Origin: Parietichytrium sp. I65-24A
Taxonomy: Eukaryota > Sar > Bigyra > Thraustochytrida > Thraustochytriidae
Direction of reading: 5' to 3'
Assembly: GCA_012862575.1 (NCBI GenBank)
Contig: BLSF01000005.1
Coordinates: 806,001-870,000, forward strand
Length of the DNA: 64,000 nucleotides
Shown here one piece after another: positions 33,161 through 38,978 of the stretch; position 1 is the first letter of the stretch, and each line of letters begins with the position of its first letter. Both the position numbers and the translations under genes were made by a program. The notes under the pieces were generated by a model. The model did not search any database. It was not told the origin of the DNA and saw nothing but the letters and a program-made list of their open reading frames with translations.

Positions 33161-33930
33161 GGATGGCTCTGTTGGATATTGTAAATTTGACGTTTGACAT
33201 GTTGAGCTTAAAGGCTTTTGAGAGACGGTGTGTGAGTGATGGGGCGATGGCAATGGCAATGGTGACGGAAGGTTTGTTGACTTGGAGAAAAGAAGACCTG
33301 CTCGCGAATGTGTACACGGGTATGTATTTATGCTTTGCTAGCCGCAAGCGGGCACGCGGATACCGTCTAAATCTCTGTGCGAATGCTTGAGGGCGCTCTC
33401 ATTTTCATTGTGGAAAGAAAGTCCACGCTCACTCGGTGATGTACGGCGCGATTCGTGAAGATGTCGAGCTCGGTCTCTTTGGCGGGTGTGGATAGGCTGG
33501 AATGAGAACTCAGCATAGATCGCGCAGGTTAGTTCAAATCGACATGCGAGAAGCGTGCTTTGTTTGGGCGTGAAGGCTAATGCCACAACAGCATCATGGC
33601 AGCAGAGTGCCGAAGAATCTCGGAACTCAATTATTTCTCATATTGCTTCGTCAACGCATCTGGAAGGAACATCAAAAGAAGCAACGCAAATGCGAGGCTA
33701 GAAGGGGCCTCTGCGCGAGGAGGACAGCGAATCAGGCCACGCAAAAAGTGTCTGTTCGTGACATGGGATGATCTTGAGGAATGGAACGAATCGAAAATTT
33801 AACCTTTGTTTTTTAGAGAGGATCAAAGCAACTGCGCCCCTAGCAACTGGGTTGCACATCGTTGAAACGTCAAAAGATGGCCGGTCCAAGCTTTCGACAG
33901 ACTCAAGTCAAAATTTGAAGGAGTAAGAAA

Positions 33931-34737
33931 TCATGCCTCCAAGTCTCTTGCCTTTACGCGCTGCGAGTTCAAGCGAAAGCAGCCGTACATCGTTAGTAAA
34001 ACTGCCCCAGCAAAGACCAGCGAGCTTGTGCTGCTACTTATGACTGGCTCTTGAAGCTCGGCGATGCCTATTTCCGGCTCCTCCACCCCCGGCTCCACTA
34101 CCCCATCTGGATTCACTTTCGCCGACTGAGGCTTCAGAATCGTAAAATTTTTGATGCAGCTCAAAAGTGGAAAGTTTTTCTTGAGATACGCGTTTCCCTC
34201 GGACTGGATCAGGTTTTGCTGCGGAGATCTAGGCCCGTCGCTCATCACCATGAGCTTGTCTACTTCCTCCATTCCGCTCTCGACCACGGCAAATGGTGTG
34301 AATCCCATCGAGTCCAAACGAGAGTTGTCGGCATAGTTGATAAAGAATTGAAACGTCCTCGTATTAGGGCCGCTCGTCGCAAATGAAACGTACCCGCGCT
34401 TATTCGATGCAAGCGCAGACCTCGGGTCGTCCGGGATTGGCACTTTCCACGCCGCCGAACTCTTCGGATCCGCTGGAATTCCAGCCTGCGCCACAAACCT
34501 GGGAATGACCCTGAAGAAGCAAGCATCATCGTAGAACGAAGCCTCCAACAGCTTTTTAAACTGCTCCGCACCCTTTGGCGACCATTCCGGCACGATCTTA
34601 AACTTGACAGTCCCTACGCTCGGCGGCGAAAAGTGTTCCACAACCATACTCGCATAAAACGGCTCCATATCATCGCCTCCTTCCACAGTGCACTGGGCCG
34701 CCAGCCCGCACAGTGCAAGCACTCCCAAAACCCGCAT
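33931..34737 (-). CDS. Cyclophilin-type peptidyl-prolyl isomerase, secretory pathway, membrane-anchored
   Basis: 268 aa from ATG 34737, ending with TGA. Residues 1-17 ('MRVLGVLALCGLAAQC') look like a signal peptide. A cyclophilin domain spans about 28-200: 'VKFKIVPEWSPKGAEQFKKL', 'FFRVIPRFVAQAG', 'GPNTRTFQFFINYADNSRLD' and 'FAVVESGMEEVDKL'. The catalytic Arg in FFRV is present, whereas the usual G-F-M-x-Q-G-G-D loop is altered to RFVAQAGIPAD. A C-terminal hydrophobic segment at about 238-256 ('SLVFAGAVLLTMYGCF') is followed by a basic tail. Cyclophilins speed Pro isomerisation during folding; this one would face the ER lumen, anchored by its tail. Whether the altered loop keeps activity is uncertain. 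Single exon. Confidence 0.85.
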   Translation of the reverse strand: MRVLGVLALCGLAAQCTVEGGDDMEPFYASMVVEHFSPPSVGTVKFKIVPEWSPKGAEQFKKLLEASFYDDACFFRVIPRFVAQAGIPADPKSSAAWKVPIPDDPRSALASNKRGYVSFATSGPNTRTFQFFINYADNSRLDSMGFTPFAVVESGMEEVDKLMVMSDGPRSPQQNLIQSEGNAYLKKNFPLLSCIKNFTILKPQSAKVNPDGVVEPGVEEPEIGIAELQEPVISSSTSSLVFAGAVLLTMYGCFRLNSQRVKARDLEA

Positions 34738-35321
34738 CCTGCTATCCTGCTATCCTGCTATCCTGCTATCCTGCTCCTTCCCGCACCGCTGTACCCTTCC
34801 TCCAATTATCCTCGGCAAATTTCGCTCACTCTGTCTCAACGATCGGTGAATTCGATGCCGGTATTGAGTATACGAGTCCGCGCGCTCGTTGGCAAACTGA
34901 CTTGGACGTTTCGATCAAGTTGTCAATGTCATTTGATAACTGGTAGATATGCTAAACATTAAGAGTTTTCGCACTTTCGTCGAAGGATGTGGATTTTGGA
35001 GATACGATAAGCTACATATTACATGGTGATGATCTTGGAGGATAAGATGGAGGATTGGAAATGCAATGCAATGCAATGCAATGGAGGCTGAAAGATTGGA
35101 AATGAAACAAACTCTCGTGCACCGGCACTGGAGCACTTGAGAATTGGAACCAGTGGTTTTTGCCGGTTCGATCCGATGAGCAAGATCATGCCTGTTGTGT
35201 CGATGTGGAGAGGCATGTTTTGTGTTGACAGTGAGTCGGGCGGTCTGGCTCTTGAAGACGCAGCGATTCAAATACGACTGCTTCAGGTGCATGCAAAAGC
35301 TGCCAGAAGCTGCGCTGGTGG
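34738..35321. other. Intergenic with CTGCTATC and GCAAT tandem repeats
   Basis: About four tandem units of TATCCTGC occupy 34739-34775, immediately upstream of the cyclophilin start codon, and (GCAAT)n lies at about 35060-35083. TGACAGTGAG occurs at 35226-35235. No gene is seen. Confidence 0.6.
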
Positions 35322-37160
35322 TCAAAAAGGAGGTGGCGGGTTCGCTGGTTGGAGGTAAAACTTTTTGTTTGCAATGTTGAGCTCGGAGAGCGGCTTTCCT
35401 GCCTCCGCTCCGTCCAGATACTTTCCACTCGTATCGTGGAGATCAAAGGCCTCCAAATTGGCGCACTCGTAATTGCGCCCGATTTGATTGATGAGATCTT
35501 GAAGCAAAGAATTTGAGGGCAGCTTGAAGACCTTGTCTTTTGAGTCAGTGAACTTGATCTTTACGAAAACAAAAGAACAATCTCCGCTCAACTTGGTGGA
35601 CGTTTGGGGTCCTTCTGCAGCAGACTCGACAGGAACAAATGGCAAGCGCTGCTGCGCCGATTCGTCTACTCGTGTTGGTGACGGGGTGCCGCCAAAGCGG
35701 TCGAGAAGCTCAACACTATTGAGGAGATCATAAGTCGGGAAACACCAACCGAAAGTGACTGGCCATCCTTTACATGCATCGAGCGAGGGATTGTCATCCT
35801 GAGATTTGAGAGGTTCTGATGCGGGCACGGAAGTCTTAGCCGCTTTCACCTCGCCTCCCGATGGAAGATGAACCGCAAAATGCCTCACACCCTTCACCTT
35901 AAGTAAGGATCCGACGAAGCCAGACTTTGCCCAAACCACCGCTCCTGGGCCAAATTTCTCAACGTACTTACGGAACTGGGCCTCGACCTTTTCCACAATA
36001 TTGAGCGGAGACAGACCCCTCACTAGAAGGCTTTGCTTCGCATCAATTCAGTGTACTTCACTCCCCTGAATGTATATAGGTTCCGTTAATAGGGCATCTG
36101 GTGTAGCAGAGGTGTTGTCTGCGTTCTCTTCTTGCTGCTCAAGCATCTGGTCCGCCTCTGTCTTGAACTCTATACCTGCGTCCATGAGATCCGAAAAGAG
36201 CTTTTCTTCTGCTGGTTGGCATACTTTTCTGCAAAGCTCTTCATGCATGTTGTGGCTTTTCGACTTGAGCTTGATTGCAGAATAATAGTCTTTGCTACCT
36301 AGTGAGATGGCTTCCTTTGCAAGACGCCACTCGGGCCTGGTCTCGATTTGACCAGGGTCGTCGGAATGCTCCATGTCAATCACGTTTTCCACTGCATCGC
36401 GCCCAACAAGTGCGAAAGCTAGCTCAGTGGTCGAGGTTTGCAGCTCTTTGGCCTTCAGCTCTAGCCACAACATTCCGCTGGGAACTTTCTTCTCGTTTTC
36501 TAAGAAGTCTTTCAGTAAACCCTCTCGCAACTGTGCTTCCTGCCATACCCGTTCAACGTTGCTATAAACGATGCCTTTCTGGCGCTCACGTATGAGGAGC
36601 GTGATTTGCTTTACTGAGAAACCCTTATTTTTCAGCGCTTGTTTCAGAGTGCGGTTATGGATCTTGAAGGGTGTACTAGTCACGTCAAGCGTCGCTTTGG
36701 TGAGAAGCTTCACAACGTCTTTGCCAACAGTCCGGCCATCCGTCCAGTGCGGAAACTCTCTCTTGCCTACAGATTTGGACTTGAGCTCCGAAGCAACGTC
36801 CACTTGTAGGGGCTTACAAACGAGCCCGCCATTCTCGTCTGGAGCGAAGAGCTTCGTGTGGGTTCTCAGTTCATGCATCACAAGCCCGCGCGCTCTCAAT
36901 AATTCTCCAGCCGCTGGATGCGCTGCATAGAATCTGCCAAGATTTTGTTGCCTCAGCTGTTTCTCCTGAATTTCATCGCTCGACAACCACAAATACAGCG
37001 TCCATACCGAGGCTTCCAAGCTGCCTTCTCTGGCATGCCGATATTTGGCGAGCTCGTCGACATCCATCTTCGTGGCGCTCAGCACCAACTTTGTCGTGGT
37101 CTGCGCTTTCGTGCTCTTTCGGGTTTGCTCTTGGTCAAGGTACTGACGCTGTGAAAACAT
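35322..37160 (-). CDS. CDIN1: CDIN1-like PD-(D/E)xK nuclease with ubiquitin-like tail, interrupted by an in-frame TGA
   Basis: One frame runs from ATG 37160 to the stop at 35322, 611 residues, broken only by TGA at 36048-36050. Before it: 'EEKLFSDLMDAGIEFKTEAD' and 'TPDALLTEPIYIQGSEVH'. After it: 'IDAKQSLLV' and 'VEKVEAQFRKYVEKFGPGAV', then 'GWCFPTYDLL'. Known CDIN1 (C15orf41), a nuclear partner of codanin-1, has TPD-x-x-L, then H-W-I-E-S-K, then R-F-G-P-G and a final C-F-P-T. The TGA thus sits on the conserved Trp (TGG), two residues before the catalytic acid of D-x-K. Residues after about 510 form an added region, its last 75 ('FVKIKFTDSKDKVFKLPSNS') like a ubiquitin fold. Without read-through the product ends at residue 370 and lacks the catalytic motif. 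A later start at 37067 is possible. Either a nonsense allele, a sequence error, or read-through. Confidence 0.75.
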
Positions 37161-38978
37161 GGGAAAACTGTACTATTCCCATCAACTCAAGTGAGTGAAC
37201 AGTATCGACCTTGCTCCATTATCTTCCTTTCCTTCTCAAGTTTACATGGTTAGGAAATTTCCCACTCCTGAATTATTATAAACATACAGCGACCTACCGC
37301 GCGTACTTAACGATCTGGTTGATGTATGGTAGGCAAAGTATGTTTTTGGAGGAAAGTTTGCGAGTAGGGAAGAAAATATCTTTGTGAATTCTAATGATTT
37401 TTATAGATGTTTGGGTGATGGTCCTCGAGTACTAGCGGGGTTGGGTAGCAGTCCTTGTGTTGTCAAAATTTGCGATTTAGACTTTGTCTCCCGCCGCAAT
37501 CAAAATTGACTGTGAAAGAAAGTGAGAACGTTCTGGTGGTCTGCGAAGATCTAACATCCTCGTACTCACTATCAACCAAATATTGACTGTGTGAGAGCTG
37601 GAAGCAAAGTTTTTTTTTGGTGTTGCAAAATGAAGCCAACCAACATACACTTCAATTTGACTCGGAGCTTCGTTGGGGTTTGCTTCGTTGGGGCCAGTCC
37701 CGAAAAAGAAGAACAACGAGCAGTTCGTCTCTGGAGAAGATTGAAAACCTGCAAAATGCAGGTGTTTGCTGGGTGGCGTTCTGTGGCATCAAACTGTTCT
37801 CCAGGGCATGCAAAAGTCTAGCCGAAACACGAAGTATTTATCGATATCGAGCTTTGCGGGACTGAGTTTCATCGCAAGTGATGTCATTGGCATATGCATA
37901 TGCATGGTTAAAATGCACAGCTTCAAAACATTTCTTCAAAAACCTATCAAAAGCTTCAAGCTTCTTCTTGATCAAGAAGCTGCACAACTGTGTTGCACGA
38001 TACGAAATATGCCCGCCTATCCATCCTCTACTCATCCATCCCTCCGTCCATCAAATTCCCACAGCGCTGATGGACGGCTGTTCTACTTTACATCTATAAT
38101 AGCTTACACTGTTTCCCCAGTTTCCTCTCACAGAACAAAGCCTTGCGACCGACCTGAGACTCAATCTGAACTGACATATCACTGTCAGAATGCGTCAGAA
38201 TAGAAGAAGCCTGGGCATGCCTGGGCCGTGTGTAAATTTACACAGAGAACCGCCACCGCCACCGCCACTTTTAAAAGCTTCAATGTACATAGAATGCAAT
38301 CGGTTTTACAAAATAGTTTTCAACTCACTGCAAAACGAAAGATTTATGATAACCATTGCAAACAAAGTCGATCAAAAGACTTTCCATTTACCATTCATCA
38401 ATCATCACAGTTTCAGCTTCAACTGAGATTGACTGACTGTGAATCGAGACCACAGCGATGGAAGAAAACATCAATCAACTTATAATGATTGATTAACTAT
38501 TTCATTTTCCACTCTGAGCATCTCTGAGCAATGCGATTAATGCGATGGGAAGATACAGTACTCCGAGTCCGACTCATAGTCAACGGTAATAATAACAATT
38601 AATATCTTTCATTCATTCATCAATCAATCAATCAATCAATCAATGAACATTGAGACTGACTGTGAACAAACAGTCTTCGTTTTGGCATGTGACCGAGGAC
38701 AGGTGAGGGGCAGCAAAGATACGCGTCTCGAAGGAACAGACTCGCGAATTCGTAACAATCTGCCGTTGTAAGTTGAGTTTGAGTTCACGGGGCCGGTCGA
38801 TGCGGTCGGATATGATATGATGATGATGATGAAGAAGAAGAAGACGAAGGCCAAGTTGAAGTTGAAAGTGGTGAAAGCGTGGATAGCGAGACTGGAACGA
38901 GGGAACTTACGTGTATGAGTGCGTGGGCGACCAATGGGCAGAATGGAGTGGCGATCGGCGCGCTGAGTGAACGGTAAC
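37161..38978. other. 1.8-kb divergent intergenic region
   Basis: Promoters of the CDIN1-like gene (-) and the glutamate-synthase-like gene (+) face away from each other here. It holds four TGACTGTGWRA-like copies (37508, 37586, about 38440, about 38650), (AATC)n at about 38614-38642, and (ATG)n/(AAG)n at about 38815-38850. A poly-T run lies near 37611. No gene is seen. Confidence 0.6.
38614..38642. repeat. (AATC)n microsatellite
   Basis: About seven tandem CAAT units following ATTC units. Confidence 0.9.

What the first reader, a model, noticed from the sequence alone, without database searches (positions are those of the whole stretch)
36048..36050. In-frame TGA replaces the conserved Trp two residues before the catalytic D-x-K of a CDIN1-like nuclease
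The frame is open for 370 codons before and 241 codons after this TGA with coding character on both sides. The flanks spell H-stop-I-D-A-K, where CDIN1 proteins have H-W-I-E-S-K. One G-to-A change of TGG explains it. The truncated product would lack the nuclease's D-x-K. UGA is a normal stop elsewhere in the window, so this is not a reassigned code. Options: nonsense allele, base error in the assembly, RNA editing, or regulated read-through making two products.
Basis: partly seen in the sequence, partly recalled or inferred. Interest (0 to 1): 0.75.

Follow-up and report, generated by a model that had tools for sequence, protein, structure and literature searches.

The report
Stop codon inside a CDIN1-like gene
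In an unidentified microbial eukaryote, a spare, divergent copy of a CDIN1-type nuclease gene carries one in-frame stop codon exactly where its relatives have an unchanging tryptophan next to the active site, most likely an ordinary recent gene-killing mutation or a base error rather than a new way of reading genes.

Summary
On the minus strand a 370-codon frame ends in TGA at 36050-36048 and the same frame stays open for 241 more codons. Both halves have coding character in that frame. Both match the TPD/CDIN1 nuclease profile (PF14811), and the match runs colinearly across the stop. In 52 relatives aligned here the TGA column is Trp 52 times.

UGA is an ordinary stop in this 42.5-Mb eukaryotic genome. 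It also ends this gene, and of 287 kinase and WD40 matches only 5 hold a stop, each behind an intron-like donor. The window gene is not the only CDIN1: an intact, more canonical copy lies on another contig. The window gene is a divergent extra paralogue, whose loss would be easier to tolerate.

With no other lesion in 611 codons, the stop is recent, an error, or the frame is still selected. I favour a recent nonsense allele or young pseudogene (0.5), then a base error (0.27), then recoding by read-through or editing (0.13). Intron and selenocysteine are unlikely. Reads, RNA and near relatives, which would decide, were not available, and the organism was not identified. Interest is low to moderate.

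The parts
36048..37160 (-). Upstream frame: ATG start, 370 codons, ends in TGA; N-terminal part plus the first half of the TPD (PD-(D/E)xK-type) domain
   Evidence: PF14811 positions 13-80 at residues 296-370
36048..36050 (-). In-frame TGA at the column of the invariant Trp
   Evidence: Trp in 52 of 52 relatives at this column
36096..36104 (-). T-P-D motif (first acidic residue of the presumed active site)
   Evidence: sequence; T-P-D invariant in an alignment of 25 relatives without the window gene
36036..36047 (-). I-D-A-K motif directly after the stop (second acidic residue and Lys of the presumed active site)
   Evidence: column counts
35322..36047 (-). Downstream frame: 241 codons plus the distal TGA stop; second half of the TPD domain, then an extension whose last 125 residues have no Pfam match; contains no Met codon

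Best explanation
This is a divergent extra copy of the CDIN1/TPD nuclease family in a small eukaryotic genome, cut by a real, recent nonsense mutation at the invariant Trp of its active-site motif. Shown: the stop, the coding character on both sides, the conserved column, and an intact canonical paralogue elsewhere in the genome. Inferred: that the codon is really in the organism's DNA, and that ribosomes stop there. The product would then be a 370-residue protein with no D-x-K and half of its nuclease domain, or the mRNA is removed by surveillance. Either outcome may be tolerated because the C62 gene still supplies a CDIN1. Whether the stop is fixed (young pseudogene) or one allele of a polymorphism cannot be told.
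For: TGA at a column that is Trp in 52 of 52 relatives. Homology is colinear across it. Coding scores are equal on both sides. UGA is a stop here: 0 of 150 WD40 rows have any stop; 5 of 137 kinase rows do, each stop lying in or after a GTAAGT or GTACGT donor; TGA follows 12 of 32 other stop-to-stop frames of 350 or more codons. An intact canonical paralogue exists at C62:252887-253273. A DNA search with the whole gene and a protein search with its upstream half find the window gene once. The gene has 249 one-step routes to a stop, about 4% of substitutions, so one such hit is ordinary; absence of further lesions puts a neutral event under about 3.9% divergence at 95%, or about 1.4% if indels are counted.
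Against: No reads, no second individual and no close relative were available, so the base itself is unproven. A gene with a single lesion is also what a base error or a functional stop would look like. Codon bias after the stop is undiminished, as expected for any of these.
Confidence: 0.5

Rival explanations
1. A single-base error in the assembly: the organism's gene is uninterrupted and makes an ordinary second TPD-family protein.
For: Only one lesion in 611 codons, with full coding bias on both sides. The assembly has isolated single N bases (2 in the window, and 1 at an rDNA end seen in two overlapping loci, in 204,633 bases looked at), so consensus calls are not perfect.
Against: No exonic stop was seen in 287 kinase and WD40 rows, so stop-making errors are not common; that sample is too small to exclude a low error rate (about 1e-5 per base, my estimate). 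The stretch around the codon is not a homopolymer or simple repeat.
Confidence: 0.27
2. A functional stop: low-level UGA read-through or mRNA editing yields the full nuclease, so the gene makes a short inactive product and a rarer full-length one.
For: The frame stays intact after the stop. A review reports Trp as the residue most often inserted at UGA (PMC5370586, passages seen), which would give the family residue. Filamentous fungi correct in-frame stops to Trp codons by A-to-I editing (PMC7306014, passages seen). The downstream half has no Met (0 of 241; P about 0.008 at the rate of other long ORFs), so it cannot be started separately at AUG.
Against: The 90 nt after the stop fold no better than 300 mononucleotide shuffles (-23.8 against mean -22.8, s.d. 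3.4 kcal/mol). The UGA-A context is not one I know (recall) to favour read-through. None of the 287 kinase and WD40 rows has an exonic stop. No RNA or peptide data.
Confidence: 0.13
3. Selenocysteine: UGA is decoded by the genome's tRNA-Sec.
For: The genome has a tRNA-Sec gene with anticodon TCA (74.3 bits; ARAGORN).
Against: All 52 relatives aligned have Trp there, not Cys. No SECIS match in 34200-37300 even at E up to 10. That negative is weak: the same Rfam model gave no match anywhere in the genome (133 of 614 candidates scored).
Confidence: 0.02
4. A spliced intron removes the stop.
For: 131 frame-keeping GT-AG excisions are possible in principle with both ends within 400 nt of the stop; the shortest is 39 nt. 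The genome does have introns with GTAAGT-type donors.
Against: The first AG after the stop is 12 nt on, at the Lys codon, so every such excision removes I-D-A-K, although the profile match runs colinearly on both sides. 132 of 137 kinase rows and 150 of 150 WD40 rows have no stop inside.
Confidence: 0.04

Closest known systems
CDIN1 (C15orf41), Pfam PF14811 TPD
   Same: T-P-D, then I-D-A-K in place of [I/V]-[E/D]-[S/A]-K, Q-x3-Y-x4-G-x-G, and a trailing Gly; a long N-terminal region before the nuclease domain
   Different: About 25% identical to this genome's own canonical copy over 122 domain positions; three extra residues after the D-x-K motif in the alignment with six longer archaeal proteins; a long C-terminal extension; interrupted by TGA at the Trp column
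Archaeal TPD proteins of the phylum of L005 (a Thermoplasmata archaeon by title), two classes seen here: W-x-E-S-K (35 of 35 domains read) and W-I-D-A-K (16 of 16 read)
   Same: The window gene matches both class profiles about equally (40.2 and 39.5 bits) and shares I-D-A-K with the second class
   Different: Not assignable to either class; mean identity 26% and 25%
Premature-stop correction by A-to-I editing in filamentous ascomycetes (PMC7306014, passages seen)
   Same: In-frame stops that interrupt an otherwise intact gene and become Trp codons in the RNA
   Different: No RNA evidence here; organism not shown to be a fungus

Membership tests
CDIN1/TPD (PF14811) family | Profile match over the family cut-off | tested here: met
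   54.6 bits against cut-off 27 when the tool reads across the stop; each half alone is below cut-off, 20.8 and 18.7 bits
CDIN1/TPD (PF14811) family | T-P-D and [E/D]-x-K active-site motifs | tested here: met
   TPD at 36104-36096 and IDAK at 36047-36036, on opposite sides of the stop
CDIN1/TPD (PF14811) family | Invariant Trp before the [E/D]-x-K motif | tested here: not met
   TGA in the window; Trp in 52 of 52 others
CDIN1/TPD (PF14811) family | Invariant Gly four residues after the Lys | tested here: inconclusive
   In the domain alignment the window has Leu there (Gly in 52 of 52 others); an alignment with a 3-residue insertion puts a Gly in register
Canonical CDIN1 orthologue | Closest family copy in its genome | tested here: not met
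   C62 copy scores 139 bits and the window copy 54.6
Nuclear code with UGA = Trp | In-frame TGA at conserved Trp codons of many genes | tested here: not met
   0 of 150 WD40 rows hold a stop (150 of 828 candidates scored); 5 of 137 kinase rows do (125 of 353 candidates scored), each at an intron-like donor
Selenoprotein | UGA plus a SECIS element | tested here: inconclusive
   tRNA-Sec present; no SECIS by Rfam near the gene, but none anywhere in the genome by that model either
PD-(D/E)xK nuclease fold | Predicted fold | not tested
   Structure prediction of the intact own paralogue was asked for five times and the machine was busy

The most novel reading that the evidence does not exclude
The TGA is a kept molecular switch: a second CDIN1-family nuclease whose active site is completed only when UGA at the invariant Trp is decoded, by read-through or RNA editing, so that translation itself sets how much active nuclease is made.
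Probability: 0.08. Interest if true: 0.75.

Novelty: new member of a known kind. Interest (0 to 1): 0.22.

Why it matters
If it is a nonsense allele, it is one more decaying paralogue and suggests that the extra TPD-family gene is dispensable. If it proved to be a kept switch, it would be a rare case of recoding at the active-site motif of a nuclease family whose human member is mutated in an inherited anaemia, and for which the tests reported in PMC7261414 found no nuclease activity (passages seen). The by-product that may last longer is that this eukaryote holds two TPD-family genes, one canonical and one very divergent.

Tried and rejected
Reassigned code: rejected by the kinase and WD40 controls and by the gene's own distal TGA.

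Intron: frame-keeping GT-AG excisions within 400 nt of the site were counted (131) and those under 200 nt listed. A 34-nt candidate noticed by eye breaks the frame and meets another stop; the frame-keeping 39-nt one removes the motif.

Separate downstream gene: no Met in 241 codons.

Second haplotype or repeat copy: a DNA search with the whole gene and a protein search with the upstream half found only the window copy.

Selenocysteine: see rivals. My own SECIS-like pattern scan over 33801-36047 gave no structure that convinced me.

Taxon: I guessed a thraustochytrid from the 18S end (recall only). The PUFA-synthase search, expected positive for that group (recall), gave 13 rows and none over the cut-off, so the organism is unresolved. 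The 18S family search failed twice and was replaced by a primer pattern, which reached only rDNA 3' ends.

Relatives: phages none; viral contigs one weak hit over 36 residues that I did not take as a relative, and none for the window's upstream half; genome contigs one archaeal hit for the C62 protein. PDB by sequence: none for the upstream half. NCBIfam: nothing near a cut-off.

Suppressor or short-stemmed tRNA-Trp: not tested; no tRNA-Trp lay in the 21 loci and the window scanned.

Full report
Observation. The TGA is in the sequence at 36050-36048 on the minus strand. It closes an ATG-started frame of 370 codons, 37160-36048. The same frame then stays open for 241 codons up to a second TGA at 35324-35322. 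Pfam's TPD profile PF14811 matches the end of the first half (20.8 bits, profile 13-80) and the start of the second half (18.7 bits, profile 96-126); both are below the cut-off of 27. Read across the stop as one stretch the match is 54.6 bits. HMMs that I built from two classes of archaeal relatives give 40.2 and 39.5 bits for the two halves joined with X; the best of 1000 shuffles of the same letters gives 6.8 and 5.9. So the homology runs colinearly through the stop, with no frame change.

Coding character. A codon model trained on other long ORFs of this genome gives 0.151 bits per codon before and 0.154 after the stop, each the best of six frames. In a 144-kb sample (the window plus eight 10-kb stretches) there are 23 same-frame pairs of ORFs with at least 100 codons each and one stop between them. 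In 1 of the 23, the window pair, both halves score best in their own frame.

The column. I aligned 51 archaeal TPD domains with this genome's own other TPD protein, 52 sequences in all, and the window gene with X at the stop. The archaeal rows are a part of what was found: 158 of 292 genomes of the phylum of L005 (a Thermoplasmata archaeon by its record title) had a match. I used the 30 best loci, L024, and 20 rows chosen by hand, 16 of them from the lower-scoring class. At the TGA column all 52 have Trp. Lys four residues on is 52 of 52; the acidic residue is E 35, D 17; the residue after it S 36, A 16; the residue before Trp varies (His in 3). Against the family, the window also lacks the invariant Gly four residues after the Lys in that alignment; an alignment with a three-residue insertion restores it. 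In a separate alignment of 25 longer rows without the window gene, T-P-D, the Trp and the Lys are invariant.

Two copies. The genome (42.5 Mb, 172 contigs) holds a second TPD gene at C62:252887-253273 with 139 bits and no stop. It reads NWIDSK and is 269 residues long. Its mean identity to the archaeal W-x-E-S-K class is 36%, that of the window gene 26%. It is the better CDIN1 candidate. The window gene is about 25% identical to it over 122 domain positions and has a C-terminal extension whose last 125 residues have no Pfam match. A DNA search with the whole gene and a protein search with its upstream half find no other copy.

Code. Kinase domains: 137 rows (125 of 353 candidates scored), of which 5, in 4 genes, contain a stop. 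I read those four loci in three frames by eye; each of the five stops lies in or after a GTAAGT or GTACGT donor where the kinase sequence breaks off. WD40 repeats, which carry a conserved Trp (recall): 150 rows (150 of 828 candidates scored), no stop. After 32 other stop-to-stop frames of at least 350 codons the stops are TGA 12, TAG 12, TAA 8 (some may be intron ends). UGA is therefore an ordinary stop.

Recoding. A tRNA-Sec gene is present. No SECIS was found near the gene, but the same Rfam model gives no match in the whole genome, so that negative says little; the stronger argument is that the column is Trp, not Cys, in the relatives aligned. The RNA after the stop is not unusually structured. 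A review reports Trp as the most frequent residue inserted at UGA (PMC5370586, passages seen), and fungi correct in-frame stops by editing (PMC7306014, passages seen); both would yield the family residue, but nothing in these data shows either. The tRNA-Trp of this genome was not seen.

Age. The gene has 249 one-step changes to a stop, about 4.1% of random substitutions (kappa 2). If the gene had drifted since the stop arose, a second lesion would be expected with 95% probability by about 3.9% divergence, or 1.4% if indels at a tenth of the substitution rate are added. The stop is therefore young, or an error, or the frame is still selected. The downstream half lacks Met (0 of 241 against 2% in the training ORFs, P about 0.008), so an independent AUG-started fragment is not possible; I draw no more from it.

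Verdict. A real interruption of a divergent extra TPD-family gene, most likely a recent nonsense mutation (0.5), otherwise a base error (0.27), with functional recoding possible but unsupported (0.13). Nothing here requires a new mechanism. What would settle it (reads, RNA and near relatives) was not held. Structure prediction for the intact paralogue could not be run. My paper searches showed no report of this gene in the titles and abstract openings listed (20 of 23, 0, 3 of 3, 3 of 3, 4 of 4 and 8 of 22 papers); they cover only the held open-access library.

Noticed in passing
G000:C62:252887-253273 (L002): An intact canonical CDIN1-like gene (269 aa, NWIDSK) in the same genome, so the species carries two TPD-family genes.
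   Followed up: yes
L024-L080 (archaeal genomes): TPD proteins of this archaeal phylum fall into two classes: one scoring 126-168 bits in the rows listed, with W-x-E-S-K in 35 of 35 domains read, and one scoring 67-82 bits, mostly in longer frames (306-450 codons in the rows listed), with W-I-D-A-K and then [NH]-[FY]-[FY]-G-A in 16 of 16 read. One genome (G279) has two copies, both of the first class.
   Followed up: partly
window 35325-36047 (-): The 241 codons after the stop contain no Met codon (P about 0.008 at the rate of other long ORFs).
   Followed up: partly
G000:C42:319030-319115 (L007): A clear tRNA-Sec gene (anticodon TCA), yet Rfam's SECIS_1 model gives no match in the genome (133 of 614 candidates scored), so its SECIS elements may differ from the model or be missed.
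   Followed up: partly
L012 (G000:C16 end): What looks like the end of a Copia-type polyprotein (my reading, no search) lies upstream of the last 200 or so bases of 18S rDNA at the contig end; insertion or assembly junction.
   Followed up: no
G000:C66:8562-22499: A single open frame of 5583 codons with four matches to one region and three to another region of the PfaA profile (presumably ketosynthase and ketoreductase, recall), like a giant modular polyketide synthase.
   Followed up: no
window 2447 and 51063: Isolated single N bases in otherwise continuous sequence, a sign of imperfect consensus calls.
   Followed up: no
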